The notes under the pieces: model-generated
Databases searched by the model: none
Told to the model about the DNA's origin: nothing
What the model saw: the letters and a program-made list of their open reading frames with translations, nothing else
Translations under genes and position numbers: made by a program
Shown here: positions 11,453-24,328 of the stretch, piece after piece
How the letters are laid out: each line of letters starts with the position of its first letter
How positions within the stretch are numbered: position 1 is the first letter of the stretch
Origin: Anaerolineales bacterium UBA6663
GTDB taxonomy: Bacteria; Chloroflexota; Anaerolineae; Anaerolineales; UBA6663
Assembly (NCBI GenBank): GCA_002455335.1
Contig: DKKP01000417.1
Span: forward strand, 1 to 26,337
Reading direction: 5' to 3'
DNA: 26,337 nt

Positions 11453-13708
11453 ATGACTCCACCCATTTCGATCTGGCGACGACTGACGTTGGTCGCCGCT
11501 TTGCTGACGGCCTGTGGGAACCCGGCGGCAACCACGCCGACCGCGGATACGCTGCCGCCGCCGGTGATCTCGACGCCGACAGTCCCTCCTGCGACGCCGA
11601 CCCCGGCAGAGCTCTCTACGCCTGAGTTGGCCCTGGCCGCGTACCTGGAGGCCTTCACCACCCGCGACCTCACGCGCTTGACTGGCCTCGTGACACCCGA
11701 CAGCCAGGGGGGCTCAGCCGAGGCCTTTCAGCAATCCGTGACGCAGCTGCTCGGCAATACGCTCACAGCGACCGAAATCGAAGCGCGGCCCGGCGCAGTC
11801 ACGGTCGATGGCGCCAACGCGACAGCCACGGTCGATCTGCGCTATCAGACCGCGCTGGTTGGCGAACTGAACACCACGGTCAGCATCCCGTTGCGGCAGG
11901 ACGCAGGTTCGTGGCGCGTGGTCTTCAGCCCGGCCGTGATCTGGCCAGATCTGGTCAACGGGCAGCAGTTGCTCATGGTCGTGCTGACCCCGGATCGGGG
12001 ATCGATCCTCGATCGCAATGGCGTGCCGCTGGTCGAGAACACGTCGGCCTATGCGGTCGGATTTGTGCCCGGTGAACTGGAGGAAGAGAGCGCGGGTGTG
12101 GGTGGCGTGGCGCGTTTGTTTGGGATCTCGACCGAGGTGCTCAACGTGCGGCTCGCCAACGCCGTGCCCGAGCAATACCTGATGATCGGCGAGGCGCCTG
12201 CGGCGCTGGTCGAGGGGCGCTACGGTTACTTGTTCAACACGCCGGGCGTCTATCTCTACGGTTACGAGGGCCGCTTTTACTACGGCGACGGCGCTGCCGC
12301 GCACGTCACTGGTTACACAAGCTACATCCAGCCCGAAGAAGTCCAGACGTATCGCGAGCAGGGCTATTTCGGCACCGAGCGCATCGGCTCGGCCGGGCTC
12401 GAGGCCTGGGGCGAGGTCGCGTTGGCGGGGAAGTCGGGCGGCCAACTGCAATTGCGCGATGCGAATAGCCAGTTCCTGCGCATGATCGCGCAAACCCAAC
12501 CCCAGGACTCGCAGACGATCACGTCCACGGTCGATCTCGACTTGCAGGAGGCCGTGCAGTTCGCGCTCGGCGACTTCTCGGCCGCGGCCGTGGTCCTCGA
12601 TCTGAACACGGGCGCCGTCCTGGCGATGGCATCGGCGCCGACCTTCAGCCCGAACCTGTTCGATCCGGGCAATCGCAATAACGACTCGGCCGGCGCGATC
12701 CTGAGCGATCCACGACGTCCAGGCATCAATCACGCAACGCAATCGGCGTACCCGGCGGGCTCGATCTTCAAAATCGTGACGATGGCGGCCGGCCTGACCT
12801 CGGGGCTCTTCACGCCAGAAAGCCGCTACGACTGCAACGGCATTTGGGAGGAAATGGATAACTTCCCACGCCCCGACTGGCTCGAGGGCGGGCACGGCGA
12901 CATCACCCTGGTCGAGGGTCTGTCGGGCTCGTGCAACCCGTGGTTCTGGCACATCGGCCTCAACGTCCACAACCAGGACCCGGAGTGGCTGGGGGAGACG
13001 GCTCGCGCCTTTGGCCTGGGCGCAGTAACCGGGATCGCCCAGGTGGACGAAACCCCGGGCCAGATCCCGGATCCCGAGTGGAAGCAGCGGACGCGTGGTG
13101 AGGCCTGGACGGCGTTTGACGACGTCAACATGTCGATCGGCCAGGGCGATGTACTTGTCACGCCGTTGCAGTTCGCTCGGCTGACGGCGGCGATCGCCAA
13201 CGGCGGCACGCTCTATCAGCCGCAACTGGCCCTGAGCGTCGCGGCCCCTGACGGTCAACCGACCTTCACCTTTGCGCCGATCGCGCAGGGCACCCTGCCG
13301 CTGACCGAAGAACAACTGGCCGCGATCCAGACTGGCATGCGCAACGTGACCAAGGAGCCGATAGGCACGGCCCGCAACCGCTTTCGCAACTTCTCGATCC
13401 CTGTGGCAGGTAAGACCGGGACGGCCGAGGATCCGGGTGTGAGCGGCATCCAGGAGCCGGACGCGTGGTTCACGGGCTTCACGTACGCCGGCCGCAGCGA
13501 CCGGCCCGACATCGCCTTTGCTGTTGTGGTGCAGAACCAGGGTCAGGGCTCCGATTTTGCGGCCCCGATCGCGCGGCGCATCATCGAAGCCTACTTCGGC
13601 CTGAACTACGCCCGCTACCCCTGGGAGGCCTCGGTCGGCGTGCCGGCGGATCTCATTGCGACCCCGACGCCGGACCCGAGTGTGCCGGTGGATACGCCAA
13701 CCCCATGA
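11453..13708 (+). CDS. Class B penicillin-binding lipoprotein, MecA-like
   Basis: Peptidoglycan DD-transpeptidase of 751 residues that cross-links cell wall outside the membrane. A lipoprotein signal ends at C21 (LVAALLTAC), followed by a Thr/Pro-rich linker. Then comes a MecA-type NTF2-like domain (about residues 45-155, LALAAYLEAFTTRDL through WRVVFSPAVIWP), a dimerisation region starting TPDRGSILDRNG, and the transpeptidase with S437-xx-K (AGSIFKIV), S493-C-N, and K654-TG (AGKTGTAED). All three active-site motifs are intact. A longer frame from 11408 would put polar residues before the signal, so 11453 is preferred. The last ~97 codons are duplicated at 23878-24165 as part of the repeat flanking the mobile element, but this copy is complete. 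Confidence 0.94.
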   Translation: MTPPISIWRRLTLVAALLTACGNPAATTPTADTLPPPVISTPTVPPATPTPAELSTPELALAAYLEAFTTRDLTRLTGLVTPDSQGGSAEAFQQSVTQLLGNTLTATEIEARPGAVTVDGANATATVDLRYQTALVGELNTTVSIPLRQDAGSWRVVFSPAVIWPDLVNGQQLLMVVLTPDRGSILDRNGVPLVENTSAYAVGFVPGELEEESAGVGGVARLFGISTEVLNVRLANAVPEQYLMIGEAPAALVEGRYGYLFNTPGVYLYGYEGRFYYGDGAAAHVTGYTSYIQPEEVQTYREQGYFGTERIGSAGLEAWGEVALAGKSGGQLQLRDANSQFLRMIAQTQPQDSQTITSTVDLDLQEAVQFALGDFSAAAVVLDLNTGAVLAMASAPTFSPNLFDPGNRNNDSAGAILSDPRRPGINHATQSAYPAGSIFKIVTMAAGLTSGLFTPESRYDCNGIWEEMDNFPRPDWLEGGHGDITLVEGLSGSCNPWFWHIGLNVHNQDPEWLGETARAFGLGAVTGIAQVDETPGQIPDPEWKQRTRGEAWTAFDDVNMSIGQGDVLVTPLQFARLTAAIANGGTLYQPQLALSVAAPDGQPTFTFAPIAQGTLPLTEEQLAAIQTGMRNVTKEPIGTARNRFRNFSIPVAGKTGTAEDPGVSGIQEPDAWFTGFTYAGRSDRPDIAFAVVVQNQGQGSDFAAPIARRIIEAYFGLNYARYPWEASVGVPADLIATPTPDPSVPVDTPTP

Positions 13709-13713
13709 AAGCA

Positions 13714-13793
13714 ATTTGCGATATGTGATTGGTGATTTACGATTTCCTCTTTGCTTCGAGGAAATCGCAAATCACCAATCACATATCGCAAAT
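13714..13793. repeat. Long hairpin between PBP gene and tRNA (left copy)
   Basis: Two 36-nt arms (13714-13749 and 13758-13793) are reverse complements with one mismatch, separated by an 8-nt loop (TTTGCTTC). It starts 5 nt after the stop codon, in AT-rich sequence unlike the neighbours. It would act as a bidirectional barrier between the convergent PBP and tRNA genes; the form also resembles a small dispersed palindromic (REP/MITE-like) repeat. Confidence 0.85.
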
Positions 13794-13799
13794 GCGTTG

Positions 13800-13842
13800 A
13801 GCGGGTGATGGGATTCGAACCCACGAATATCAGCTTGGAAGG
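13800..13842 (-). other. attL: 3' half of tRNA-Gly(TCC)
   Basis: Holds the discriminator, acceptor 3' strand, T arm and the 3' side of the anticodon stem-loop of tRNA-Gly, then diverges after CAGCTTGGAAGG. The missing 5' half (D arm, acceptor 5' strand) is found only at the right end. This places the crossover in the anticodon loop, a classic tyrosine-integrase position. It is non-functional as a tRNA. Confidence 0.9.
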
Positions 13843-13877
13843 GCGTCCCAACGCCCGCCAGGCCGATAGAGTCGGGA

Positions 13878-13903
13878 AATCTGCCTGTATTCAGTTGTTC
13901 GCG
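13878..13903 (+). repeat. Left terminal inverted repeat (integrase arm site?)
   Basis: Reverse complement of 23838-23863 with 25 of 26 matches (core GTATTCAGTTGTTCGCG). It lies 35 bp inside the attL crossover and directly upstream of the integrase gene, so it probably binds integrase and may also control the int promoter. Confidence 0.8.
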
Positions 13904-13916
13904 AAGGCGGACAACT

Positions 13917-14831
13917 GTGACCGAACCCAAGAACGAACAGCATCTTTCACAAGGAACCGTCGTCAACCTGGGCCAGTGGGCGAGGGCGTTTCTGATCGCC
14001 AAGCGGGCCGAAGGTGTCACCACATCGACGATCAAACGCGCCTACGCACCCATCCTGGCCAACGTCGAGAGGTTCTGTCGGGCGCACGAAGTGACCACTG
14101 TCGAGGCCATCGACCCGACTCTGATCCGCGAATACCTCCTGGCTCGAGCCGAAATGGGGAGGAAGCCCTCAGACGTTCATAGACACTATAGGGTCATCAA
14201 GACCTTCCTGCGCTGGTACGAGATCGAGACGGCGGCCGAGGGTTGGCGCAACCCGATCAACCGGGTAGCACCTCCGAAGGTGCCCGAGCTGGTGCTCGAC
14301 CCGGCGCCGCTGGAAGACATTGCGGCTATGGTCAGAGAGTCGGGGCCTCGAGACCGAGCCATACTTCTGACACTGGTGGACACCGGCCTGCGGGCGTCCG
14401 AGCTACTCGGACTCAACGTCGAGGACTTCGACTTCGCTGAGGCCGTGCTTACGGTGCGGCACGGGAAGGGCGGCAAGGTTCGTCTTGTGCCACTTGGGGC
14501 AAACTCGAGGCGGGCCCTTCGGCGGTGGCTCAGGATCCGGCCGGCCAGGGGGGTGGCGCTGTTTCTGAGCAAGGACGGCACACGCTTGACCTACCAAGGC
14601 CTGCGAACGCAGATACTGCGCTTGGCCAAGCGGGCAGGGGTGAAGGCGCCGCAGCTGCACGGCATCCGCCGGGCATTTGCTATTGGAATGCTTCGGGCAG
14701 GGGTCGATTTGCTGACTCTATCCAGGCTGCTGGGTCACAGCCGACTCGACCTGCTGGCCAAGTATGCCAAACAATCGATCGAGGATCTTCGGGCAGCGGT
14801 GGAACGGGCGAGCGTGGCGGATAAGCTTTAG
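13917..14831 (+). CDS. Tyrosine recombinase / integrase (XerC/D-like), attL-proximal
   Basis: 304-residue site-specific recombinase, probably the enzyme that inserted the element into tRNA-Gly. An N-terminal SAM-like core-binding domain (about 18-110) precedes a catalytic domain with the full set R159 (DTGLRASELL), K187 (GKGGKVRL), H248-xx-R251 (HGIRR), H274 (LLGHS) and nucleophile Y283 (AKYAKQ). The GTG start is preferred because AAGGCGG (13904-13910) lies 6 nt upstream. A 7-bp inverted repeat (13892-13898 with 13911-13917) brackets that ribosome site and could limit translation. A 20-bp repeat shared with the right end lies inside the first codons, suggesting self-regulation by integrase binding. 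No excisionase gene is recognisable nearby. Confidence 0.93.
   Translation: MTEPKNEQHLSQGTVVNLGQWARAFLIAKRAEGVTTSTIKRAYAPILANVERFCRAHEVTTVEAIDPTLIREYLLARAEMGRKPSDVHRHYRVIKTFLRWYEIETAAEGWRNPINRVAPPKVPELVLDPAPLEDIAAMVRESGPRDRAILLTLVDTGLRASELLGLNVEDFDFAEAVLTVRHGKGGKVRLVPLGANSRRALRRWLRIRPARGVALFLSKDGTRLTYQGLRTQILRLAKRAGVKAPQLHGIRRAFAIGMLRAGVDLLTLSRLLGHSRLDLLAKYAKQSIEDLRAAVERASVADKL
13933..13952 (+). repeat. Left copy of 20-bp end repeat
   Basis: ACGAACAG-N3-CTTTCACAA matches 23816-23835 in the same orientation at 18 of 20 positions. It lies within the integrase 5' coding region. It is a candidate second class of integrase arm-type site. Confidence 0.6.
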
Positions 14832-14874
14832 GACGACGCAAAAAGGCGCTACTTTCTTACTGACGAGCGAAACA

Positions 14875-14914
14875 TTCGCGCACCGATTGTCCGCGAACCA
14901 TGCTAACGTATAAT
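14875..14914 (+). promoter_or_regulatory. Promoter and palindromic operator of the PIN nuclease unit
   Basis: A consensus TATAAT at 14909-14914 is preceded, 16 nt upstream, by TTGTCC (14887-14892). A TTCGCG-N11-CGCGAA palindrome (14875-14880 with 14892-14897) covers the -35 region. The arrangement, a promoter covered by an inverted repeat ahead of two overlapping genes, is typical of autoregulated toxin-antitoxin operons. The regulation is inferred. Confidence 0.6.
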
Positions 14915-14985
14915 CGAGGCGATATCACAGAAGTGTGCCAAAACAGGGCACATCCATGGATCGCCTTCTTGAAAGAGGACATCCT

Positions 14986-15795
14986 ATGGCAAATGATCGG
15001 CGCATCACTATTAGGATGCGCGGCCGGATCGAAGACGGTGGTGATGTCCGGTTTGAGGACTTCATCCGCCAGCTCGATTCGGTAAGGACCGCGCTTAGCG
15101 AAACAGAGAGAATAACCACAGCAACAAAGTCTGTGGCGTTCCGTGTTATCGGGCTTAGCCACAACAGTCCAGCCACAATTGTTCTCGAGGCCGTCGACGG
15201 TTCTGGGAATGCTGGAGTTGCCGCAGATGTGGTTGGAATGTTCATGCAATCAATCGACGCTGTGCGCAAGGGCACCGCGCCTGATCGATTTGACTATCCC
15301 GCCTTTCGCGCCTTCAAAGAGATATCGAAACTGGTCGACACGCACAAGATCGAGCACGTTGGCATATCGCACAACGGGGATACGGAAATTCCGGTCTCGG
15401 CCCTGGCCAAGAGTTTTGACCTGGCGTTCGGCTCAGATGAACGCGAAACCGGATCAGTCAGCGGCATGCTTGAGCAAATCAATCTACACGCCAACCAAAA
15501 CGTGTTCACGATTTACCGGGCATCCAACATGCCGAAGCTACGCTGCGTGTTTGCGAAAGATCTTCGACAGGAAGCTATCGGCGCGGTTGGTAAGCACGTA
15601 ACTGTGTTTGGTCAATTGAAGTACAAGGCGCGGCTTGACGGCGGCCGTCCCTTTGAAATGAAGGTCACTAGCATCGAAGTTCACCCACCTGATGACGAGT
15701 TGCCCACACTTATGTCCCTGTTTGGCATTGCGCCCGACCTGACGGGAAACCAAAGCAGCGAGGACTACGTCAGGAGATTGCGTGATGAGTGGTAA
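14986..15795 (+). CDS. Unknown protein paired with PIN nuclease (candidate antitoxin)
   Basis: 269-residue protein I cannot assign to a named family. The start is the ATG preceded by GAAAGAGG 7 nt upstream; a longer frame from 14935 lacks a ribosome site. It begins RRITIRMRGRIEDGG, predicted beta-strand, followed by helices. Its C-terminal part (VTVFGQLKYKARLDGG, then a DELPTLMSLFGIAPDLTG turn and a final VRRLRDEW) resembles the extended tails with which VapB-type antitoxins grip PIN toxins. It overlaps the PIN gene by 11 bp, so they are translationally coupled. At 269 residues it is three times the length of usual VapB proteins. No DNA-binding fold is obvious. The antitoxin role is inference from gene order. 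Confidence 0.7.
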   Translation: MANDRRITIRMRGRIEDGGDVRFEDFIRQLDSVRTALSETERITTATKSVAFRVIGLSHNSPATIVLEAVDGSGNAGVAADVVGMFMQSIDAVRKGTAPDRFDYPAFRAFKEISKLVDTHKIEHVGISHNGDTEIPVSALAKSFDLAFGSDERETGSVSGMLEQINLHANQNVFTIYRASNMPKLRCVFAKDLRQEAIGAVGKHVTVFGQLKYKARLDGGRPFEMKVTSIEVHPPDDELPTLMSLFGIAPDLTGNQSSEDYVRRLRDEW

Positions 15796-16333
15796 GCCGG
15801 CATACTATTGGGACACCTGTGTTTTCATATCTTTGATCTCTGGAGAAAAGCGATCCGACCCGCGCGAATCGAGCGGAATACTTGAGCATGTCTCCCGGTT
15901 TGACACCGGCGAAATCAGGCTTGTCACCTCGGTCTTGACTCTGACCGAGGTGCTAACCAGCCACTTCACGCCGCAGATGGAAGAGAGATTCCAAGGAATC
16001 ACTCACAGAAGCAACTTCGAGCTCATCAATGTAACCTCGATCATCGCCACAATGGCTCAAGAGCTGCGTGGCTTCTATCAACTCAAGGCGTCATCAGATG
16101 GGCTGCCTACGCTTGGAACGCCCGACGCGATCCATGTCGCTACCGCGATAGTAAGCCATTGTGACGTGCTATTCACGTTTGATGGCAGCGACAAGCCTGG
16201 CAAGCAGCGCGCCCTACTACCGCTTTCGCCAAAGATCGCCGGAAGATACGACCTGAAGATCGAACGACCGCTTTCAACACAATTATCCCTCGGGCTTCCA
16301 GTTCAAGCCCGCAAGAGAAGCAGGTTGCGATAG
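15785..16333 (+). CDS. PIN-domain nuclease (VapC-like)
   Basis: 182-residue predicted Mg2+-dependent ribonuclease of the PIN superfamily. The acidic quartet is present: D10 (YYWDTCVFISLI), E55 (LTLTEVL), D114 (GTPDAIHVATA) and D133 (LFTFDGSD). VapC toxins of this type cleave tRNA or rRNA; the target here is unknown. AGGAG sits 8 nt before the ATG, and a GTG three nt upstream is an alternative start. It is longer than a typical 130-residue VapC, with a polar C-terminal extension after about residue 140. With its overlapping partner and autoregulatory-looking promoter it probably stabilises the element by post-segregational killing or acts in defence. Confidence 0.85.
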   Translation: MSGKPAYYWDTCVFISLISGEKRSDPRESSGILEHVSRFDTGEIRLVTSVLTLTEVLTSHFTPQMEERFQGITHRSNFELINVTSIIATMAQELRGFYQLKASSDGLPTLGTPDAIHVATAIVSHCDVLFTFDGSDKPGKQRALLPLSPKIAGRYDLKIERPLSTQLSLGLPVQARKRSRLR

Positions 16334-16647
16334 GCAGCACAAATCGTGGGATGATCGTGGTCCAAGCCGGTCTGAATGGCGACGGCAATGCCTAACACTG
16401 CCCTCGTGGCTTGCTGGTTGGTCTGCCGGGCACTCCATCTGTTTCCGCAACAATACCTCACAAACCACAATCCCTATTAGCGCTAGTTGACCGCTGAACA
16501 ACCCGATATTCGCCCGTCGCGTCAGGACGGGCTATGAGGCCCCTCACGGGGCCTTTTGCATTCCAGGACCATCCCGGCCAGTGGCGTCCTCTGACGACTC
16601 GCCACACGTCACGTCGGGCGCTTCTACACCCCAAAGAGGATAACATC
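16334..16647 (+). other. Intergenic stretch before the second recombinase
   Basis: 314 bp without a convincing gene. It contains the tandem hairpins annotated at 16512-16557. A TTGACC (16487-16492) has no properly spaced -10. The segment from about 16560 to the ribosome site AAAGAGGA (16633-16640) looks like an untranslated leader. Confidence 0.5.
16512..16557 (+). terminator. Tandem hairpins with intrinsic terminator
   Basis: The first stem is GCCCGTC/GACGGGC (16512-16518 with 16526-16532). The second is AGGCCCC/GGGGCCT (16537-16543 with 16548-16554) with a 4-nt loop and a following T run. It would end transcription of the PIN unit, or act as an attenuator in the leader of the second recombinase, whose ATG is 91 nt further on. 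Confidence 0.7.
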
Positions 16648-17616
16648 ATGACCCATCTGATCCCCACTGCGGCCGGCACCGACGTTGAGTCATTGGGAGC
16701 CGTCGCTCGAGAATATGCAAGCCATAGCAAGGCCCCATCGACTCTGCGCAACTACCGCGCCGGCTGGGCCGAGTTCGCCAGCTGGTGCCAGGCCCAGGGG
16801 CGGGAGAGTCTTCCAGCCAGCCCGGCGACTGTGGCTGACTACATTGGTGCCTTGGCCGCCAACGGCGCCAAGGCGTCAACGATCAACCTAAAGCGCTGCG
16901 CCATTGGGTTCGCCCACCGGGCGGCCAACCTGGCGGATCCCACAGCGGCGGAGGTCGTGCGGGCGGTGCTTTCGGGCATCACCCGCAAGATCGGTTCAGC
17001 GCCCGATCGCAAAGCGCCGCTGACTCTTGAGGCGTTGCGGCCAGCGCTCGCGGCTCTACCTGACTCGATTGCCGGGGTCCGCGACCGCGCCATTCTTCTC
17101 CTAGGGTTTGCCTGTGCGTTGCGTCGCTCTGAGTTGGTGGCGCTAGATGCCAGTGATCTACTCCTGGCCAAGGCCGAATTGAGAGTCACTATTCGGCGCT
17201 CGAAGACAGATCAAACCGGCATAGGCACCGAAATTATTGTCCCGGCCGTTGGCGGTGAGCTCTGCCCCGTGCAGGCTGTCGGCGCCTGGCTCGAGGCAGC
17301 TGAGATCACCGGCGGACCGGTGTTCCGCCGAGTAGACCGGCACGGGCGCGTGGGCCAGCGTCGTTTGTCGGCTCAGAGTGTGGCGTTGATCGTCAAGGCT
17401 GCAGCTCGCCGGGCCGGCCTCGACTGGCGCCGACTCTCTGGGCACTCGATGCGGGCCGGTTTCGCAACCCAAGCAGCCCTGAATGGCGTCAACCCTATCG
17501 ACGCGATGGCGGTTACGCGACACAAGAGCCAGACGGTATTCTCTGCCTACATTCGCGCCGCCGGAGTACAGCAACGCCAAGCGATTGCAGCAGCGTTGAG
17601 GCGGTCGGACCGATAG
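16648..17616 (+). CDS. Second tyrosine recombinase
   Basis: 322-residue site-specific recombinase of a different branch from the attL-proximal integrase. Catalytic residues are R159 (CALRRSELVALD), K186 (RRSKTDQTG), H266-xx-R269 (LSGHSMRAGF), H292 (VTRHKS) and Y301 (SAYIRAA). The N-terminal domain (about 10-115) has the AREYASHSKAPSTLRNYRAGW pattern common in plasmid and transposon recombinases. A ribosome site AAAGAGGA lies 7 nt before the ATG. It is located between the PIN unit and the replication genes, not at an end, so it may resolve multimers of a circular form or be the relic integrase of an older insertion. I see no attachment site adjacent to it. Confidence 0.92.
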   Translation: MTHLIPTAAGTDVESLGAVAREYASHSKAPSTLRNYRAGWAEFASWCQAQGRESLPASPATVADYIGALAANGAKASTINLKRCAIGFAHRAANLADPTAAEVVRAVLSGITRKIGSAPDRKAPLTLEALRPALAALPDSIAGVRDRAILLLGFACALRRSELVALDASDLLLAKAELRVTIRRSKTDQTGIGTEIIVPAVGGELCPVQAVGAWLEAAEITGGPVFRRVDRHGRVGQRRLSAQSVALIVKAAARRAGLDWRRLSGHSMRAGFATQAALNGVNPIDAMAVTRHKSQTVFSAYIRAAGVQQRQAIAAALRRSDR

Positions 17617-17709
17617 TTCTTCCACTTCGACGGACCCGCCAGACGTGCAGAAATCGCTGGAAAACAAGCGGATTCCGCACACGCCCATCTCGTCGACATC
17701 GTCGCGACG

Positions 17710-17776
17710 TTGCCCCACCAGAACAGATGCGCTACTATGTATGCCACATGGATGATGCCTGTCATTGGCATCATCC
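17710..17776 (+). promoter_or_regulatory. Promoter with 10-bp palindrome ahead of the replication operon
   Basis: TTGCCC (17710-17715), a 17-nt spacer and TACTAT (17733-17738) form a plausible sigma-70-type promoter. A perfect inverted repeat, GGATGATGCC with GGCATCATCC (17750-17759, 17767-17776), lies just after the expected start point. It is a candidate operator for the ribbon-helix-helix-like protein encoded next. Confidence 0.5.
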
Positions 17777-17855: not shown

Positions 17856-18149
17856 ATGTCACACCCCACTTCGTTCCGCTTTCGACCGCAAACGCTCGAT
17901 CTTCTTGATCGACTCGCAGCTAAGCTGCAGCGGTCCCGGACCGCAACCCTCACGTTCCTAATCGAGCGCGGCGCGGATGCCCTGCTCGAAGATCCCTCCG
18001 ACACCCCGCGGGCATTCACGGCAACCGAATATCGGCCAGGAGGCGCGGATCCCCGAATCCCGGATGAGTTGGTTCGCCGGTTGGTCGAAATCGTCCTCGA
18101 GGCGGGCGACGTTTCCGAGAAAGCCAAGCGCTCTCGGGGTGCGCGGTGA
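17856..18149 (+). CDS. Ribbon-helix-helix (CopG-like) DNA-binding protein
   Basis: 97-residue protein. The first ~45 residues fit the RHH pattern: a short strand TSFRFRPQTLDLL, helix DRLAAKLQRS, turn, then helix RTATLTFLIERGADALLED. The C-terminal half is charged and of no known type. It sits directly upstream of the primase-helicase gene, overlapping it by four bases (GTGA), just as CopG-type proteins precede replication genes on small plasmids, where they limit copy number. Binding to the palindrome at 17750-17776 is likely but inferred. GAGG sits about 9 nt before the ATG. Confidence 0.75.
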   Translation: MSHPTSFRFRPQTLDLLDRLAAKLQRSRTATLTFLIERGADALLEDPSDTPRAFTATEYRPGGADPRIPDELVRRLVEIVLEAGDVSEKAKRSRGAR

Positions 18150-19720
18150 CCGCGCCTACGCTGGCGGCGGTTGAGCGCCGCCCCGTTCGCACCGGTGGCC
18201 GCCCTCTCGCCTCTTTCGGGGCCGTGGCCGAAGACTACGCGCGACGCGGGTGGCATGTCTTTCCTCTTCGCGGAAAAGGCCAGCAATTGATCCGGTCGTG
18301 GGCTAGGGAAGCCACCACCGACGTTGAACAGATCCGCGAGTGGGACCGGCGCTGGCCGGACGCTAACATCGGCATCGCTTGCGGACCATCGCGGCTGGTG
18401 GTGGTTGACCTCGACGGCGACGCGGGTAGCGAAACGTGGGAACGTTTGACGGTCACCCACGACATCGAGTCTTCGCCACTTGTGTCGATCACGGGCTCTG
18501 GTGGCAGGCACATCGTTTACCAGTTACCCGACGGTGTTCACCTGGGCAACACCCAGAAGCGCCTTGGACCGGGCATCGATACGCGCGGCGAAGGCGGCTA
18601 TTTCATCGTCCCCCCGTCGATACACCCAAATGGCAAAGACTACCGTTGGCTCGACCGGGCCGCCGAACCCCTGCCCTGCCCGTCGGCGTTGATCGAGCTG
18701 CTGGCTTGCGAGCCCGAACAGCCCGACCCGTGGGCCCCACAGGCGTTGTCGCTGGCGGCTATCCGCCAGCCGCGTCCACCGGTTGCGTGGGTGCTCGACG
18801 GCGTGCTTGCTCGTCGCTCGGTGAATCTGCTTTACGGGCCGCCGGGGGGGTTCAAGACGATGGTCGGCGCCGCGTTGGCGGCCTGTGTTGCCGGCGGACA
18901 GCGCTTTTTGGCTTCTTCTGATGGATCGGGCGGACTGGCCGTCGTACAGGGACCAGTCACCTGGCTCGACTTCGATTCTGGCGAGGATGTCACGGTCGAA
19001 CGCCTAGCCGCGTTTGCTGCTGCGCATGGCTTGCCAGAGGATGCGCCTATCACCGCGTATTGCTCACCCAACCCAGCCTTCGACGCTTCCGACCCACTCT
19101 CTGTGGCTGCGCTGATCGAGCGTTGTCAGGGGACTGCTCTGATCGTGATCGACACGCTGACCCATATCAAGGGCGGGATCGACTCAAATTCCGACGACAT
19201 GACCGCCGTCATGACCGGGCTCCGCGAGTTGGCAGAACGAACCGGCGCGGCCGTGCTCGTTCTGCACCACCAGCGTAAAGCTCAAGTCGGAGGTCACGCT
19301 CGAGAGGGAGATTCAATCCGGGGGTCATCGGCTATCGAAGCCGGGCTCGACACCGCGCTGATGGTGCAGCGCGACGGCCGGCGCGTCACGATCAGATCGA
19401 CCAAAAGTCGGCGCGGTGAGATCCCGACCCTTCATGCAGAGTTTACCTTCGAGCATGCAGCTGACGGCAAGGCGCTGGCCAGTGCTCGCTTTTGGCCTGT
19501 CGCTGGACCCTCTGAGCAGGCATTCGGCGCAATCGCCGATCGGGTAGTCGACGCCCTGCGCCAGAGGGGGGAGCTCTCCACTAACCAGCTTGAGGACTCG
19601 GTCGGCGGCAACAAAGGGCAGCTCAGCCAGGTGTTGGAGCAACTTGTGGCCCGTGGGTCGGTCGCTGTCAGGAAGGGGTCACGCAATGCCAAAGTCTATT
19701 CGATACCCACTGGTGACTGA
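18146..19720 (+). CDS. Primase-polymerase/RepA-like helicase fusion
   Basis: 524-residue replication initiator. Residues about 25-190 form a bifunctional primase/polymerase (archaeo-eukaryotic primase) domain: RGWHVFPL, catalytic DLDGD (88-92), GSGGRHIVY (H122) and GEGGYFIVPPSIHPNG (148-163). Residues about 205-450 are a RecA/RepA-type (AAA_25) helicase with Walker A GPPGGFKT (231-238), Walker B ALIVIDTL (331-338), LVLHHQRK (371-378) and RGSSAIEAG (392-400). Residues 455-524 look like a winged helix. It would open the origin, unwind and prime DNA. It starts with GTG overlapping the RHH gene, so the two are coupled. The usual primase C-terminal domain is missing here but is encoded 120 bp downstream. 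Both catalytic sites are intact. Confidence 0.92.
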   Translation: MTAPTLAAVERRPVRTGGRPLASFGAVAEDYARRGWHVFPLRGKGQQLIRSWAREATTDVEQIREWDRRWPDANIGIACGPSRLVVVDLDGDAGSETWERLTVTHDIESSPLVSITGSGGRHIVYQLPDGVHLGNTQKRLGPGIDTRGEGGYFIVPPSIHPNGKDYRWLDRAAEPLPCPSALIELLACEPEQPDPWAPQALSLAAIRQPRPPVAWVLDGVLARRSVNLLYGPPGGFKTMVGAALAACVAGGQRFLASSDGSGGLAVVQGPVTWLDFDSGEDVTVERLAAFAAAHGLPEDAPITAYCSPNPAFDASDPLSVAALIERCQGTALIVIDTLTHIKGGIDSNSDDMTAVMTGLRELAERTGAAVLVLHHQRKAQVGGHAREGDSIRGSSAIEAGLDTALMVQRDGRRVTIRSTKSRRGEIPTLHAEFTFEHAADGKALASARFWPVAGPSEQAFGAIADRVVDALRQRGELSTNQLEDSVGGNKGQLSQVLEQLVARGSVAVRKGSRNAKVYSIPTGD

Positions 19721-19828
19721 CTTCCCCCAACCTCCCCCGTCTTCCCCCAGGGGGAGGTTACGACTTCCCCCACCCCCTATAGGGGGGGAAGTCGTTGGGG
19801 GAAGTGGGTGGATTCGGAACAGGGGAAG
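19721..19828. repeat. Nested palindromes of CTTCCCCC tracts, candidate replication origin
   Basis: Directly after the helicase stop the octamer CTTCCCCC occurs at 19721, 19741 and 19764, and inverted as GGGGGAAG at 19784, 19797 and (shorter) 19822. Three perfect inverted repeats nest: 11 bp outer (19721-19731 with 19794-19804), 10 bp (19729-19738 with 19750-19759) and 12 bp (19760-19771 with 19784-19795). Either strand could fold into a cloverleaf-like structure with two arms. The G runs could also form quadruplexes. Its position beside a PrimPol-helicase suggests an iteron or single-strand initiation origin; an RNA regulatory role is the alternative. Confidence 0.7.
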
Positions 19829-19843
19829 TGAAAAGCAAAGGCC

Positions 19844-20449
19844 ATGACCAACCTACCCCACTGTCTGGCTTACTTGGCCAAACTCCCGCCGGCCGTCTCT
19901 GGCTCAGGTGGACACAATGCCACCCTCCGCGCCGCCTGTGAGTGCGTTCGATTCGGCCTCACCGACTCCGAGGCCATGCAAGCCCTGGCCGAATACAACC
20001 GGCGGTGCTCTCCGCAGTGGTCCGAACGTGAACTGGCTCACAAGCTGGCCGATGCCCGCAAGCTGGCTGGCGGCCAGACCAGCCAGCGTGCCCGAAGTGT
20101 CGCCCGCAAGCGGAGAGAGTCGGCGCGCACCTTCGATCGTGCCGCCCTCGATCGAGCCTTGGCCCAGAGACGCGCCAGGAGGGCCGTGGAGACTCGTTAC
20201 GACTCCTCCCCGACTCTGGACACCCCTGGGGATGCGACAGCGTTTGTGGCACGCTCCACGCCTCCTGTGGCACGTGCCACGGATCCTGCCAGCGCCATGC
20301 GAGCTGCTTTCGCTCTCATTGAAGCATTCCCCGGCTATCTTCCTGGCGTGCCGATTGCGCGTCAGTCGATTGAAGTTGAGGAACGGTACTGGGCCGAGGT
20401 GTGGCAAAGGATGGGAGTACCCGACCCCGCCATCTTGAGGTTGAACTAG
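19844..20449 (+). CDS. Primase C-terminal (PriCT)-type domain protein
   Basis: 201-residue protein. Residues 8-75 match the pattern of the primase C-terminal domain that normally follows PrimPol domains: LAKLPPAVSGSGGHNATLRAA, FGLTDSEAMQALAEYNRRC, and PQWSERELAHKLADARK. The middle (about 80-130) is Arg-rich and probably DNA-binding or disordered; the last 50 residues are helical, with no known match. It is separated from the PrimPol-helicase gene by the nested-palindrome region, so the replication protein appears split into two genes around a candidate origin. Probably an accessory subunit of primer synthesis (inference). Confidence 0.75.
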   Translation: MTNLPHCLAYLAKLPPAVSGSGGHNATLRAACECVRFGLTDSEAMQALAEYNRRCSPQWSERELAHKLADARKLAGGQTSQRARSVARKRRESARTFDRAALDRALAQRRARRAVETRYDSSPTLDTPGDATAFVARSTPPVARATDPASAMRAAFALIEAFPGYLPGVPIARQSIEVEERYWAEVWQRMGVPDPAILRLN

Positions 20450-20451
20450 CC

Positions 20452-20754
20452 GTGCCAAACCTAACGATCAGATTGCGCTCATTGGCCGACCGTATGCCGG
20501 ACAGGGAGGTGAGCGCCAAACAGCGCGGGATCGTGGCAGGGCTGCTCGAGATGCAATACCCGGACTATCCCGAATTGCGGCGCAAGTACTTTCTGCTGAA
20601 AGCGTTCGGAGTCGACAGCGTGCACAAGTTGCATCCCCGGCAAGTTCGGGCGTTGCTGGACTGGCTGGGACCGGTGCGCGACTCTGATGGTCGACTGTGG
20701 CCGTGCGCTGCCGCGGCCAGCGACGTTCGAGCGTTCGAAGAAGCCTATCAATAG
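20452..20754 (+). CDS. Hypothetical protein
   Basis: 100-residue protein of unknown function starting at a GTG two nt after the previous stop; a longer frame from 20401 would overlap the previous gene by 49 bp. It is rich in Arg and Leu, with helical segments KQRGIVAGLLEMQYPDYPELRRKYF and HKLHPRQVRALLDWLGPV that resemble small replication or DNA-binding accessory proteins of mobile elements. I recognise no motif. It appears co-transcribed with the preceding primase-associated gene. Confidence 0.6.
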   Translation: MPNLTIRLRSLADRMPDREVSAKQRGIVAGLLEMQYPDYPELRRKYFLLKAFGVDSVHKLHPRQVRALLDWLGPVRDSDGRLWPCAAAASDVRAFEEAYQ

Positions 20755-20793
20755 GGCGCCGTATCAGGCGCTCACTCACAAGGAGCAAACATC

Positions 20794-21243
20794 ATGAGCA
20801 CAGACAAGTACACGTACATCAACGGCGAGCGGATCCGGCAACTGACAGACAAAGAACTCCTCGAGGAGAACACCAGGCTGAGTCGGCCCGTGTCGGATGG
20901 GCTGCGCGAAAAGGTCGAGGCCCAAGAAAAGCTCGAGCGCGACCTTGCCAAGCTCCGCGCCGATGCCGAAAAGTATGCGGCCGACCGTCAGGCCACCCAG
21001 GACAAGCGCCGCGCAGAGCAGGAAGCCGCTGAGCATGAGACCCGTCGTGAGGCCATGCGCCTGCGTCTCGAGCCCTATCGCCTGGCCGAGCGGCAGGCCT
21101 GGGTCGATGCGGGTGGCAGCGGACTCGACTTCGACGCGAAGGTTTGGCCTGACCGTGCCACCTCTCACGCGCTGCGCATCGCGGCCGAGGATGAGGCCGT
21201 GACCCAAGCGGCCATCTCTCGGGCCTATCGGGCCAAGTTCTAG
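20794..21243 (+). CDS. Coiled-coil hypothetical protein
   Basis: 149-residue protein with a good ribosome site (AAGGAG, 20780-20785). Residues about 20-95 are a charged heptad-rich helix (EKVEAQEKLERDLAKLRADA through EQEAAEHETRREAM), so it probably forms a coiled coil. The C-terminus has a compact segment VDAGGSGLDFDAKVWPDRAT. No family recognised; similar small coiled-coil proteins occur in phage and plasmid accessory regions. Confidence 0.65.
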   Translation: MSTDKYTYINGERIRQLTDKELLEENTRLSRPVSDGLREKVEAQEKLERDLAKLRADAEKYAADRQATQDKRRAEQEAAEHETRREAMRLRLEPYRLAERQAWVDAGGSGLDFDAKVWPDRATSHALRIAAEDEAVTQAAISRAYRAKF

Positions 21244-21254
21244 GATGACCGCGA

Positions 21255-21638
21255 ATGACCGCAAATGACCGCTCCGGGAAATTGACCAGGCGCCAACGTA
21301 ACGCCATCGGGGCCTTGCTCACCTCGCGCACTGTCCAAGAGGCGGCAAAGGCCGCGGGGGCGGGCGAAAAGACCATCCGGCGCTGGTTGGATGACCGAAA
21401 CTTCGTGGCGGCGATCGAGGCGGCTCGAGCTGAGGCGTTGAAGGTTGTGCTTCAGCGCCTCAGCTCTCTTGCCGTGACGGCCGTTGAAACGCTCGAAGCC
21501 GTCATGCTGTCCAGTGCTGCCCCCCATTCAGCCAAGGTCAGGGCGGCGAATGCCACACTGACCAATTTGCTGAAGGTCCGCGAGATCACCGCCATTGAGG
21601 AACGCATCACGCGCCTCGAAGAGAGATTGAACCGATGA
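21255..21638 (+). CDS. HTH protein resembling phage terminase small subunits
   Basis: 127-residue protein. A helix-turn-helix occupies about residues 10-48 (LTRRQRNAIGALLTSRTVQEAAKAAGAGEKTIRRWL), followed by helical oligomerisation segments ending in EERITRLEERLNR. This architecture is shared by phBC6A51-type HTH proteins and phage small terminase subunits that recognise packaging sites. No large terminase is present. Three ATGACCGC repeats spaced 10 bp (ATGs at 21245, 21255, 21265) fall in three frames; only 21255 opens a long frame, so the other two encode 7- and 6-codon peptides. It overlaps the next gene by four bases. The packaging role is inference. Confidence 0.7.
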   Translation: MTANDRSGKLTRRQRNAIGALLTSRTVQEAAKAAGAGEKTIRRWLDDRNFVAAIEAARAEALKVVLQRLSSLAVTAVETLEAVMLSSAAPHSAKVRAANATLTNLLKVREITAIEERITRLEERLNR

Positions 21639-22024
21639 CCACCAAACTGCGCCTAACGAAACTCGAGGGGTTGGCCGGCTTGGAGCGGGTGAAGCCGCGC
21701 GGCAGGGTGGCACGGGCAGCACTGAAACAGAAGTTAGAACGAGGCACTCACCAAAACCCCCTCGCGCGTCTCAGCGACTCGGAGGTGCTCGAGCGCGCGG
21801 CACAGGCACGTCAGCGCGCCGTGAAATCTGGGCGTGCCGACCTGATAGCCCGCTATGACCGGCTGCTGGCCGGCTGGGGCGTGCACAGCCCCGATGGTGT
21901 CATCCGAGTGCGCGACGAAATGAGAGCGCTCGAGGGAGAGTCGGCAGACCGGACCTCGCAGCGCATCGCACGACTCCGCCGGAGATCGGCGGAGCGCGGA
22001 AAGACCCACCCCAACGCGCCCTAG
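21635..22024 (+). CDS. Hypothetical basic protein
   Basis: 129-residue Arg-rich protein that starts four bases before the previous stop (ATGA overlap), so the pair is translationally coupled. It contains helices LARLSDSEVLERAAQARQ and RADLIARYDRLLAGWG and a basic C-terminal tail (RRRSAERGKTHPNAP). No family recognised. Its coupling to the HTH protein suggests they work together. Confidence 0.6.
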   Translation: MTTKLRLTKLEGLAGLERVKPRGRVARAALKQKLERGTHQNPLARLSDSEVLERAAQARQRAVKSGRADLIARYDRLLAGWGVHSPDGVIRVRDEMRALEGESADRTSQRIARLRRRSAERGKTHPNAP

Positions 22025-22126
22025 AATGCGGCGCCGTGAGTCGAGGCGGGCTGCTGAGAGGCCTTCCGAGCCCGCGCCGACCTTCGGGTGGGTGAGACGC
22101 ACACCGGCCCTTGTAGGGCCCTCCAG

Positions 22127-22178
22127 GGCCATCCGATATGTGCAGAATGACATAGTTAGCTGCCTATATCGGATGGCC
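22127..22178. repeat. 13-bp inverted repeat with 26-nt spacer
   Basis: GGCCATCCGATAT (22127-22139) is the perfect complement of 22166-22178. Both arms extend into GC-rich sequence, while the spacer is AT-rich. It lies in the non-coding stretch after the basic-protein gene, upstream of the predicted small RNA. Recombinase- or regulator-binding site is possible; function unknown. Confidence 0.55.
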
Positions 22179-22204
22179 TCAACGCATCGTCTGAGAAACC
22201 ATTG

Positions 22205-22233
22205 TTGACAAACGGAGGGTTACGACTCATACT
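22205..22233 (+). promoter_or_regulatory. Promoter of the predicted small RNA
   Basis: TTGACA (22205-22210), exactly 17 nt, then CATACT (22228-22233). It is one of the best promoter matches in the window, directed at a region with hairpins but no open reading frame. Transcription would begin near 22240. Confidence 0.65.
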
Positions 22234-22239
22234 AGCGAC

Positions 22240-22376
22240 AATCGAACAAAAAACGGGTCAACAAGGTGCTAGTAACACCTCGTTGACCCTGACCGAAACC
22301 ACCGCGTGAACGGTGGCACGGCTGACCTCGATTCTATCAGGGCGGCTCTGCTACACATAGGCGGGCCGCCCTTTTT
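22240..22376 (+). ncRNA. Candidate structured small RNA
   Basis: Predicted ~137-nt transcript bounded by the promoter at 22205-22233 and the terminator at 22339-22376. Its fold would have three parts: a 14-bp hairpin (22255-22268 with 22276-22289, one mismatch), a small perfect CCACCG/CGGTGG hairpin (about 22300-22317), and the terminator stem. There is no credible reading frame with a ribosome site inside it. I do not recognise an Rfam family. Possible roles are copy-number antisense RNA, a regulator of a helper phage or a leader of the downstream genes. Confidence 0.6.
22339..22376 (+). terminator. Intrinsic terminator of the small RNA
   Basis: AGGGCGGC (22339-22346) pairs with GCCGCCCT (22365-22372) and is followed by a T run through 22376. 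The 18-nt loop is long, but the stem and U tract are clear. Confidence 0.7.
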
Positions 22377-22554
22377 GTTTGGGCTCCCAGCACCAGCGGT
22401 GGTGCACATTCCCAACCTCAAAACGCCCACCGCCTACGGTGCAACTCCGGCCCGGCCACGAGAGGGCAGGCTGTGTGGCAACCTCATAACCGGCGCGCTA
22501 TTCGGCGCTGCCGGCATCCACAAATCGACCCAACAACTGAAAGGACTATCGAAC

Positions 22555-22722
22555 ATGACCAGCAATCAGCGGGCCGTGTTGCTCCAGCTGGCGGAGGAGT
22601 ACTTCGCTGACTGGCGGGCTGGCCTTGGCACCAATCCCGACGACTCTTTCCGTCGTTTCCTCGTCTGGCTGGATGACCAACTGGACAATCTGATCGTTCC
22701 TTGTCGAAAGGATCCAACGTGA
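22555..22722 (+). CDS. Small hypothetical protein
   Basis: 55-residue acidic protein beginning MTSNQRAVLLQLAEEYFADW and ending DDQLDNLIVPCRKDPT; no family recognised. The ATG has an AAAGGA about 11 nt upstream. An in-frame upstream start at 22306 would place the N-terminus inside the small-RNA terminator and is rejected. It overlaps the next gene by four bases (GTGA), indicating translational coupling with the membrane protein. Confidence 0.65.
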   Translation: MTSNQRAVLLQLAEEYFADWRAGLGTNPDDSFRRFLVWLDDQLDNLIVPCRKDPT

Positions 22723-23444
22723 ACACATCAACCAACATCAAGGGCGCCATGCAGGAACACGGCAGAAACGCATTGCGCGGCTTTGCAGTGACGCTTTCGC
22801 TGATCGTCTATGGCGCCGCACTGTTGTATGCCGGCGTGCGAAGCTATGACCTGTTTGCTCGCACCTTGCCACCTGACATGATCGGCCTCGCGCTGTTGGG
22901 CATAGTGGCGCTCGAGGTGACCGCGCTCGGCCTACCGCTGGCGATCCACTTCTGGACCTCTCCCGGCCAACAGCGCATGATCGCCTTCGGCTTCTACGGG
23001 CTTGACCTGGCGCTGATCATCGCCAACAGCATCCTCGACGCTGCTCAAAACGCTGGCTCGGTCCTGCCGGGCTTCATGCAGTGGTACGGTGTGTTTGCCG
23101 TGCCTGGCCTTCCGGTGTTCTGCATGATCGGTTGGGCCATGATCTGGATGACCGACCCGACCACCCGCGAGCACGACATGCGAGCGGCAGTGCGAGCAGC
23201 AACCCGAGAGGCGCTGTTTGGTCGGATTATCGAAGAAACGGCAGCGGCCGACATCACGGAAGAGGTACACGAGGCGGCCCGGAGCCAGGTACGTGAGATC
23301 GTGGGCGAAACGATCGCGAGAGCACCCCGTCAGCTGCAGAGCTCAACGGCATCCAGTCAGGCTCCAGCCCCCCATGGTTCGGTCCATGCCAATGGCACTC
23401 AGGCGCGTGTAAGAGTCGAGGCAGTAGAGGCCCCAAAAGGCTGA
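22719..23444 (+). CDS. Four-helix membrane protein with helical cytoplasmic tail
   Basis: 241-residue protein starting at a GTG that overlaps the previous stop, with AAAGGA 6 nt upstream. Four hydrophobic helices lie near residues 21-41, 52-74, 85-103 and 113-137, ending IGWAMIWMTDPTT. A charged helical region (about 145-200, EHDMRAAVRAATREALF) and a low-complexity Ser/Ala tail follow. No known family; the shape resembles membrane anchors or entry-exclusion-like proteins of mobile elements, but that is only a guess. Confidence 0.7.
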   Translation: MNTSTNIKGAMQEHGRNALRGFAVTLSLIVYGAALLYAGVRSYDLFARTLPPDMIGLALLGIVALEVTALGLPLAIHFWTSPGQQRMIAFGFYGLDLALIIANSILDAAQNAGSVLPGFMQWYGVFAVPGLPVFCMIGWAMIWMTDPTTREHDMRAAVRAATREALFGRIIEETAAADITEEVHEAARSQVREIVGETIARAPRQLQSSTASSQAPAPHGSVHANGTQARVRVEAVEAPKG

Positions 23445-23629
23445 ACGGCGGCTGGCGCGTCGAAGTCCTCGACAACGGGCGCCGGTGGGTGTGGCGCAAA
23501 GGCTCACACAACAGGCGCCGATCGCTGCCGGGCGGCGACTTCGCCAACCTCAGTCCAGAAAGGCAAACTGCCTATGAGCAGAACAGAGAAACGCTCAGAG
23601 AGCGGCGGAGCGAAGCTATCGCCCGCTGA
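23441..23629 (+). CDS. Small basic protein, apparent non-ATG start
   Basis: 62-codon frame that reads like real protein: LNGGWRVEVLDNGRRWVWRKG followed by GGDFANLSPERQTAYEQN and a charged helix. It has no ATG, GTG or TTG at its apparent beginning. The first plausible codon is a CTG (23441) that overlaps the stop of the membrane-protein gene, with AGAGG 10 nt upstream; a later GTG at 23489 would give a shorter protein. It overlaps the following gene by 56 bp. Start, and even expression, are uncertain; stop-start coupling from the membrane gene or a frameshift are alternatives. Confidence 0.4.
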   Translation: MNGGWRVEVLDNGRRWVWRKGSHNRRRSLPGGDFANLSPERQTAYEQNRETLRERRSEAIAR

Positions 23630-23798
23630 CGCGCTGGATGTCCTTGCCAGCGCACTCAACTACTGCAAGGATGCCGGCCTGCACTACTGGCTGGCGAACG
23701 GAACACAAGGCGAGGGGCTACTGATCCGGTTGCCCGGTGCACTCGTCAGCGAAGATGGCAGCCGACTCATGGAGGTGGAAGCCCCTGGGCAGGGGTAG
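23574..23798 (+). CDS. Small hypothetical protein, last gene of the element
   Basis: 74-residue protein beginning MSRTEKRSESGGAKLSPADA with a helix LDVLASALNYCKDAGLHYWLA and a C-terminal acidic segment. No family recognised. It lies partly within the preceding frame and ends about 20 bp before the right-end repeats, so it is the last intact gene before attR. Confidence 0.55.
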   Translation: MSRTEKRSESGGAKLSPADALDVLASALNYCKDAGLHYWLANGTQGEGLLIRLPGALVSEDGSRLMEVEAPGQG

Positions 23799-23815
23799 CA
23801 AATCCGGGTAGAGTC

Positions 23816-23863
23816 ACGAACAGAAGCTTTCACAAAACGCGAACAACTGAATACTGGCAGATT
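23816..23863 (+). repeat. Right-end arm repeats of the element
   Basis: Two repeats lie almost end to end. 23816-23835 repeats 13933-13952 in direct orientation (18 of 20). 23838-23863 is the inverted partner of 13878-13903 (25 of 26). They stop 14 bp before the captured chromosomal segment. Such pairing at both ends is the layout of integrase arm-type sites. Confidence 0.75.
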
Positions 23864-23877
23864 GAATTGCTGAGGGC

Positions 23878-24165
23878 ACGGCCGAGGATCCGGGTCTGAG
23901 CGGCGTGCAGGAGCCGGACGCGTGGTTCACGGGCTTCACGTACGCCGGCCGCAGCGACCGGCCCGACATCGCCTTTGCTGTTGTGGTGCAGAACCAGGGT
24001 CAGGGCTCCGATTTTGCGGCCCCGATCGCGCGGCGCATCATCGAAGCCTACTTCGGCCTGAACTACGCCCGCTACCCCTGGGAGGCCTCGGTCGGCGTGC
24101 CGGCGGATCTCATTGCGACCCCGACGCCGGACCCGAGTGTGCCGGTGGATACGCCAACCCCATGA
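23878..24165 (+). pseudogene. 3' fragment of the penicillin-binding protein gene
   Basis: Repeats the last ~97 codons of the PBP gene at 11453-13708, in frame to the same stop, but with no start, signal or active-site motifs. It begins abruptly with GCACGG, downstream of the element's right repeats. It starts after the KTG motif, so it cannot encode an active enzyme. It is a passenger picked up with the tRNA flank. Confidence 0.95.
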
Positions 24166-24170
24166 AAGCA

Positions 24171-24250
24171 ATTTGCGATATGTGATTGGTGATTTACGAT
24201 TTCCTCTTTGCTTCGAGGAAATCGCAAATCACCAATCACATATCGCAAAT
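24171..24250. repeat. Long hairpin (right copy)
   Basis: Identical to the hairpin at 13714-13793 (36-nt arms, 8-nt loop), now located between the PBP fragment and the intact tRNA-Gly. It presumably still terminates the tRNA transcript. Confidence 0.85.
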
Positions 24251-24256
24251 GCGTTG

Positions 24257-24328
24257 AGCGGGTGATGGGATTCGAACCCACGAATATCAGCTTGGAAGGC
24301 TGACGCCTTACCACTTGGCGACACCCGC
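24257..24328 (-). tRNA. tRNA-Gly(TCC)
   Basis: Folds into a full cloverleaf: acceptor GCGGGTG/CACCCGC, D arm GCCAAGTGGTAAGGC, anticodon stem TCAGC/GCTGA with loop CTTCCAA (anticodon TCC), T arm GTGGG-TTCGAAT-CCCAT, and discriminator T; CCA is not encoded. The 5' part (24300-24328) is original host DNA and the 3' part (24257-24299) came with the element, restoring function. A TAGAAT box on the minus strand (24340-24345) lies about 12 nt upstream and is its likely -10. Confidence 0.97.

What the first reader, a model, noticed from the sequence alone, without database searches (positions are those of the whole stretch)
13421..24299. Element carries 422 bp of its host's chromosome as its attachment repeat
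The two flanks of the element share 422 bp (419 identical), from the PBP gene's last 97 codons through a hairpin into the tRNA anticodon loop. Integrase att repeats are usually limited to the tRNA end. A circle formed by inaccurate left-right excision in a related strain would carry exactly such a block, and reintegration would give this layout. Three substitutions at one edge mark the foreign copy; the identical remainder suggests recent transfer or gene conversion. This amounts to specialised-transduction-like capture by a non-phage-like element, and offers long homology for RecA-mediated excision or jumping between strains.
Basis: partly seen in the sequence, partly recalled or inferred. 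Interest (0 to 1): 0.75.

Follow-up and report, generated by a model that had tools for sequence, protein, structure and literature searches.

The report
Mobile element carrying captured neighbouring host DNA
A small mobile DNA element in an uncultured bacterium sits in a glycine tRNA gene and appears to carry not only the usual part of the tRNA but also about 380 bases of the host DNA next to it, including the end of a cell-wall gene, which may show how such elements pick up new landing sites.

Summary
13421-13842 and 23878-24299 share 419 of 422 bp (421 of 425 from 13418). A congener (G001) has the empty site, with one copy and an intact tRNA-Gly, so this is a real insertion. The repeat ends at the anticodon loop beside a tyrosine integrase. 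By the usual crossover rule the right-hand copy came in with the element. It covers tRNA positions 30-73 plus 378 bp downstream: hairpin spacer and 96 codons of PBP2. In 15 related elements the att repeats are 43-122 bp, with at most 1 bp beyond the tRNA 3' end, so 422 bp is exceptional in this sample. The block lies 12-15 bp from one of two inverted-repeat arms; a sibling record (66% identical integrase) has arm-tRNA-Met-arm. So the element most likely captured flanking host DNA. "Recent transfer" is weaker: all four differences lie in the first 33 bp (P=3e-5 if uniform) and three match the congener in the right copy. This fits a diverged source later homogenised by gene conversion, or assembler collapse. 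Capture by faulty excision and in-situ duplication cannot be separated without reads or sister strains. New variant of a known kind.

The parts
11408..13708 (+). intact chromosomal PBP2-type gene (766 aa) whose last 96-97 codons are duplicated at the far end of the element
   Evidence: ORF; NCBIfam pbp2_mrdA 434.4 bits, below its cut-off of 455; same place in G001
13421..13842 (+). left copy of the repeat (from 13418 in the 425-bp version); by inference the native chromosomal copy
13714..13793 (.). hairpin with 36-nt arms between the PBP gene and the tRNA; one of many dispersed palindromes of this genome
13799..13842 (-). displaced 3' part of tRNA-Gly (44 bp, 100% identical to the intact gene)
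13843..24299 (+). element as it would excise by crossover in the anticodon loop (10,457 bp)
13878..13903 (+). left inverted-repeat arm, 25/26 complementary to the right arm; candidate integrase arm site
   Evidence: score 23.5; maximum of 240 mismatched pairs 13.5
13917..14831 (+). tyrosine integrase (304 aa), start 75 bp from the att edge
   Evidence: PF00589 5e-32; 18 relatives aligned, 54-67% identical
14935..15795 (+). element gene of unknown function (286 aa)
   Evidence: no Pfam, NCBIfam or PADLOC match
15782..16333 (+). PIN-domain protein
   Evidence: PF01850 1.4e-10
16534..17616 (+). second tyrosine recombinase (360 aa)
   Evidence: PF00589 2e-14 and PF02899 7.9e-06
17856..18149 (+). 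small protein with a sub-threshold ribbon-helix-helix match
   Evidence: PF01402 0.0017, 18.7 bits against a cut-off of 20.5
18146..19720 (+). Prim-Pol plus AAA_25 replication protein (524 aa)
   Evidence: PF09250 1.7e-46, PF13481 6e-34
21255..21638 (+). HTH protein resembling phage small terminase subunits (weak)
   Evidence: phrog_3218 6.7e-07
22701..23444 (+). right-end gene found in sibling elements (247 aa)
   Evidence: 78% in L113, about 50% in G008 and G021
23574..23798 (+). last gene before the right end, found in siblings (74 aa)
   Evidence: about 67% in L113; 40% in G008 and 37% in G021
23838..23863 (+). right inverted-repeat arm, ending 15 bp before 23878 (12 bp before 23875)
23878..24299 (+). 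right copy of the repeat (from 23875 for 425 bp); by inference the element-borne copy
24256..24328 (-). intact tRNA-Gly(TCC), target gene; anticodon loop 24292-24298; the only TCC copy found by similarity search in this incomplete assembly

Best explanation
A 10.46-kb integrase-encoding element is inserted in the anticodon loop of tRNA-Gly(TCC). Shown: empty site in a congener, intact tRNA, displaced 3' part, integrase beside the att edge, inverted-repeat arms near both ends. Inferred from the standard crossover rule: the right copy came in with the element, so the element supplies the tRNA's 3' part. Inferred: its attP acquired 378 bp beyond the tRNA (hairpin spacer and the end of PBP2) in an earlier cycle, when a junction formed between the element's right end and PBP codon 671 in the left flank of an integrated copy, as in specialised transduction. 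That circle carried a new core and could integrate at tRNA-Gly of another cell. Inferred: afterwards the two copies were homogenised by gene conversion, except the outermost ~33 bp; assembler collapse could mimic this.
For: Single-copy empty site in G001 at 82% identity. Block ends at the anticodon loop. 15 related elements have repeats of 43-122 bp with at most 1 bp downstream of the tRNA, against 378 bp here. The right arm ends 15 bp from the block, and 10 and 16 bp from the repeat in G006 and G020. Sibling record L113 has arm-tRNA-Met-arm between relatives of the same right-end genes and the integrase, and its ends overlap by 91 bp. The right edge of the block carries its own substitutions, so the junction is not a plain copy of the left flank. 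The tRNA is the only TCC copy found, so restoring it should be selected. All differences lie in the first 33 of 425 bp, P=3.05e-5 for that end if uniform, while G001 differs throughout.
Against: No donor strain, sister element with the same block, attP read or excision was seen. The element's right-end genes and arm are kept, so no compensating loss that faulty excision often leaves is visible. The crossover position is inferred; RecA exchange inside the block would also fit. Only four differing sites are available, and counting 13420 is a choice that also sets the edge. Of 16 elements tested for inverted-repeat arms only G000, G006 and G020 pass the 99% level of mismatched pairs; G026, G197 and G232 are at about 4-5%, the other ten show nothing notable. 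The assembly is fragmented (451 contigs, 86% complete).
Confidence: 0.55

Rival explanations
1. In-situ duplication: the element first integrated off-target at tRNA-Gly, breaking it, and a template-switching repair event copied the PBP-end/tRNA-3'-part stretch from the left junction into the right junction, restoring the tRNA. No transfer between strains is needed.
For: Fits the layout, the homogeneous interior and the need to restore the only TCC tRNA found. In 12 of 15 relatives the repeat covers the opposite (5') part of the tRNA, so this insertion looks atypical for its relatives.
Against: The right copy shares the congener's base at 13420, 13448 and 13450 where the left copy differs, which a fresh copy of the left flank would not, unless the left copy changed afterwards.
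Confidence: 0.2
2. Assembly artefact: the second copy, or at least its perfect interior, was produced by a metagenome assembler merging strains or collapsing near-identical repeats.
For: Fragmented assembly. Differences survive only within 33 bp of the unique edge, as a de Bruijn assembler that pops bubbles would leave them (the assembler argument is general knowledge, and the assembler used is unknown).
Against: The novel junction at 23878 has private bases next to it, the geometry (tRNA restored, integrase beside the att, arm spacing as in G006 and G020) matches sibling elements, and an intact tRNA requires at least its 3' part there. Collapse could explain the identity but hardly the duplication.
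Confidence: 0.1
3. Long att sites are a working feature: the integrase or its regulation needs the extra 378 bp, or RecA uses the homology for integration and excision.
For: Identity blocks up to about 250 bp are stated to occur when attP restores a target gene (passage in PMC10111431).
Against: None of 15 relatives has more than 122 bp, and 14 of 15 have nothing downstream of the tRNA. The PBP fragment restores no gene.
Confidence: 0.08

Closest known systems
Genomic islands integrated in tRNA genes by tyrosine integrases (the kind mapped by Islander/TIGER; seen as listings and passages)
   Same: Integrase at one end, intact tRNA at one end and displaced fragment at the other, empty site in a relative.
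   Different: The att identity block is 422-425 bp, beyond the roughly 250 bp stated in PMC10111431, and 378 bp of it lies outside the target gene.
Related elements in the same order with 35-49% identical integrases (15 elements, such as G006, G020, G052, G232)
   Same: Integrase start (extrapolated) 28-100 bp from the repeat edge, repeat overlapping a tRNA; inverted-repeat arms near the core in G006 and G020.
   Different: Repeats 43-122 bp; 12 of 15 cover the tRNA's 5' part and 1-83 bp upstream, here the 3' part and 378 bp downstream.
IMG/VR record 3300031973_001705 (L113, 13.9 kb)
   Same: Integrase 66%, right-end proteins 78% and about 67% identical, inverted-repeat arms flanking the tRNA sequence.
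   Different: A whole tRNA-Met between the arms and no extra host DNA seen there; no match to the window's Prim-Pol, but a D5-type primase and a tape-measure gene.
Dehalococcoides genomic islands (PMC2764846, passages)
   Same: Chloroflexota islands in tRNA or tmRNA genes with direct repeats.
   Different: Repeats of 58 bp (tRNA-Arg) and 20 bp (ssrA) from the RNA gene.
Phage HP1 of Haemophilus (recalled; one search did not retrieve its primary paper)
   Same: A long att identity block (182 bp as recalled) at tRNA genes.
   Different: Shorter and, as recalled, made of tRNA genes, not of a neighbouring protein gene.

Membership tests
tRNA-integrated genomic island (tyrosine integrase) | tyrosine integrase next to one att site | tested here: met
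   PF00589 5e-32, start 75 bp from the repeat edge
tRNA-integrated genomic island (tyrosine integrase) | direct repeats at both ends, one within an intact tRNA gene, the other a displaced fragment | tested here: met
tRNA-integrated genomic island (tyrosine integrase) | uninterrupted site in a relative | tested here: met
   G001:C40
tRNA-integrated genomic island (tyrosine integrase) | repeat limited to what restores the target gene (usual, not strictly defining) | tested here: not met
   378 of 422 bp lie downstream of the tRNA
specialised-transduction-like capture | element carries chromosomal DNA adjoining its att site | tested here: met
   assuming crossover in the anticodon loop
specialised-transduction-like capture | loss of element DNA from the opposite end | tested here: inconclusive
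   relatives of the right-end genes, and an arm, are present; no sibling close enough to see a small loss
phage satellite (PICI-like) | integrase, primase-type replication gene and small terminase without structural genes | tested here: inconclusive
   Prim-Pol present, terminase match weak (6.7e-07), no capsid or tail family; Pfam on 14 element proteins, PHROGs on 10 of these 14
phage satellite (PICI-like) | induction and packaging by a helper phage | not testable with these tools
   needs experiment
integrative conjugative or mobilisable element | relaxase or conjugation genes | tested here: not met
   no such Pfam match in 14 element proteins; other ORFs not scanned

The most novel reading that the evidence does not exclude
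This is a target-site switch caught midway. An element whose relatives mostly carry the 5' part of their tRNA entered tRNA-Gly the other way round through the near-symmetric anticodon stem-loop, and became a stable tRNA-Gly element by capturing the whole flank from PBP codon 671 to the anticodon. Att repeats would then start long and erode to the tRNA part that selection keeps, and the still-long homology would let gene conversion flow between the element and the host's PBP gene.
Probability: 0.25. Interest if true: 0.7.

Novelty: new variant of a known kind. Interest (0 to 1): 0.48.

Why it matters
How integrative elements acquire and change the tRNA fragments in their attachment sites is hard to see, because in the relatives examined here only the tRNA part and its upstream side remain. 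A block that still contains hundreds of bases of the neighbouring gene, lying next to a recognisable arm where siblings carry only a tRNA part, would be an intermediate of that process. It also suggests a route by which an element can carry part of a housekeeping gene and exchange it with the host copy.

Tried and rejected
Pre-existing tandem duplication: rejected, G001 has one copy. Remnant of a second element in tandem: would give no PBP fragment. Element as a carrier that spreads PBP 3' ends between species: protein P0241 is 100% identical over residues 672-745 but 80-88% over 80-671; that stretch is however 93-99% identical in the other nine close relatives too, so no mosaic signal is claimed. 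The LSGVQ allele: absent in the 15 PBP relatives aligned. Inverted-repeat arms as a general feature of the relatives: of 16 elements tested only G000, G006 and G020 pass the 99% level of mismatched pairs. Sibling elements in viral contigs: three single-protein scans found none; the integrase alignment found 62 loci, of which L113 is close (65%) and the next by E-value is 39%. One genome-contig scan gave a single 45% relative. The integrase's own 90% cluster has two contigs, the longest 28,096 bp, longer than this window (P0121); its DNA could not be reached. Literature: passages only of PMC2764846, PMC8371274, PMC9897764, PMC10111431 and PMC12884075; other papers as search listings. Williams 2002 is not held and is cited through others. 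No claim of absence from print is made.

Sample limits: one search listed 69 integrase matches in 52 of 400 genomes (drawn from a larger group, E <= 1e-45). Stretches holding 53 of these 69 (window included) were fetched, 16 were not; one of the 53 (G287:C26:163499) was passed over by the script's overlap filter. Two more (G026, G059) came, and all 63 loci were given too. One search scored 105 integrase matches, second integrases in a stretch included; 17 showed a repeat (90% identity or more, one copy within 1.5 kb upstream of the integrase) overlapping a tRNA, counting the window and one 17-bp case (G059) that was dropped. The other 88 showed none: viral contigs, contig ends, sites outside tRNA genes or with the far copy outside the stretch would all be missed. 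No tree of the integrases was built.
Full report
Observation. The two copies are real in the sequence: 419 of 422 bp identical, 13421-13842 and 23878-24299, or 421 of 425 from 13418 and 23875. Both edges are sharp. The tRNA-Gly(TCC) lies at 24256-24328 on the minus strand. The repeat covers tRNA positions 30-73 and 378 bp downstream of the gene. One edge coincides with the anticodon loop (positions 31-37) plus one base. The other edge is PBP codon 671 or 672.

Insertion. The window is one whole contig of a 4.79-Mb, 451-contig, 86%-complete assembly. The congener G001, 82% identical over 943 bp, has PBP, spacer, intact tRNA-Gly and the window's right-hand flank (79% over the part that matches) with no element and one copy. 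In G003 the same tRNA-Gly is split differently: a 40-bp copy of its 5' part lies about 21.7 kb away, with an integrase next to the intact gene, which suggests another element and a hotspot split at the same loop.

Which copy is foreign. With crossover in the anticodon loop, the left copy stays with the chromosome and the right copy is the element's. This is the standard rule for such integrases (anticodon loop and stem as core: passage in PMC8371274), not a measurement. The intact PBP gene on the left agrees with it.

How unusual the length is. I took related integrases of the same order and looked for direct repeats overlapping a tRNA (limits in Tried and rejected). Fifteen elements besides the window gave repeats of 43, 43, 46, 60, 60, 68, 75, 79, 83, 86, 90, 100, 117, 119 and 122 bp (one 17-bp case dropped). 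Twelve cover the 5' part of the tRNA (to position 38-44 in eleven, to 55 in G006) with 1-83 bp upstream, two the whole or nearly whole gene, and one the 3' part with 1 bp downstream. The window's 378 bp downstream has no parallel among them. PMC10111431 states that identity blocks reach about 250 bp when attP replaces part of the target gene (passage). Here most of the block lies outside the target gene.

Anatomy of the attP. Two 26-bp arms, 13878-13903 and 23838-23863, are inverted repeats matching at 25 of 26 positions (score 23.5 against a maximum of 13.5 in 240 mismatched pairs). In G006 and G020 (scores 13.5 and 12.5, near the top of the mismatched pairs) the right arm ends 10 and 16 bp from the repeat; here it ends 15 bp from the block (12 bp by the 425-bp count). 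The other 13 elements show no convincing arms in that test. A viral-collection record, L113, has relatives of the two right-end genes (78% and about 67%), then a whole tRNA-Met between inverted repeats (score 14.0), then the integrase (66%). Its last 91 bp repeat its first 91 bp, consistent with a circle or concatemer. The simplest reading is that the block occupies the place where relatives carry a tRNA part.

Age and homogenisation. The four differences lie within the first 33 of 425 bp; if spread evenly the chance is 3.05e-5 for that end. G001 differs from the left copy throughout (91 of 426 alignment columns, my sum of the bins). At 13420, 13448 and 13450 the right copy has G001's base and the left does not; at 13439 the left copy has G001's base, while G003 and G004 have the right copy's. 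At 13432 and 13438 both copies share bases that differ from G001. So the right edge is a related but distinct sequence, while the other 392 bp are identical, including a hairpin spacer that differs strongly in G001. Gene conversion between the copies, which should fade near the edge of homology, explains this. An assembler that merges near-identical repeats would produce the same pattern. Very recent transfer alone does not explain the clustering.

Mechanism. Either a faulty excision joined the element's right end to PBP codon 671 in the flank and the resulting circle re-integrated at tRNA-Gly of another cell, or a repair event copied the flank to the right junction in place. Both restore the only TCC tRNA-Gly found in this assembly (the other glycine tRNA found by similarity has anticodon CCC). 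I favour capture because of the right copy's congener-like bases, with moderate confidence.

The element. It encodes two tyrosine recombinases, a PIN protein, Prim-Pol/AAA_25, a weak small-terminase match and several unknown proteins. No relaxase or structural family was found by Pfam in the 14 proteins scanned; PHROGs was run on 10 of them. It may be a satellite-like or plasmid-like element; this is undecided.

Noticed in passing
G006, G017, G020, G026, G052, G117, G197, G232, G275, G283, G299, G374: In 12 of 15 related elements the att repeat covers the tRNA's 5' part, and in 8 of them also 30-83 bp upstream, so the element probably supplies the tRNA promoter. A review says recombinant bacterial tRNA genes are, with very few exceptions, expressed from their original promoter (PMC8371274, passage).
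   Followed up: partly
13714-13793 and 24171-24250: The spacer hairpin is one of a large family of dispersed ~80-bp palindromes in this genome (dozens of matches); G001 has an unlike spacer at the same place.
   Followed up: partly
L072/L073 (G003:C555, 4340-4379 and 26078-26117): A 40-bp copy of the 5' part of the same tRNA-Gly lies about 21.7 kb from the intact gene, with an integrase beside the intact gene: probably another element in the same tRNA from the other side.
   Followed up: partly
L113 (IMG/VR 3300031973_001705): Sibling record of 13.9 kb with overlapping ends, a whole tRNA-Met between inverted repeats, a D5-type primase and a tape-measure gene on the opposite strand.
   Followed up: partly
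15782-16333: PIN-domain gene overlapping an unknown upstream gene (14935-15795); could be a toxin-antitoxin-like pair, not tested.
   Followed up: no
16534-17616: A second, divergent tyrosine recombinase inside the element, role unknown.
   Followed up: no
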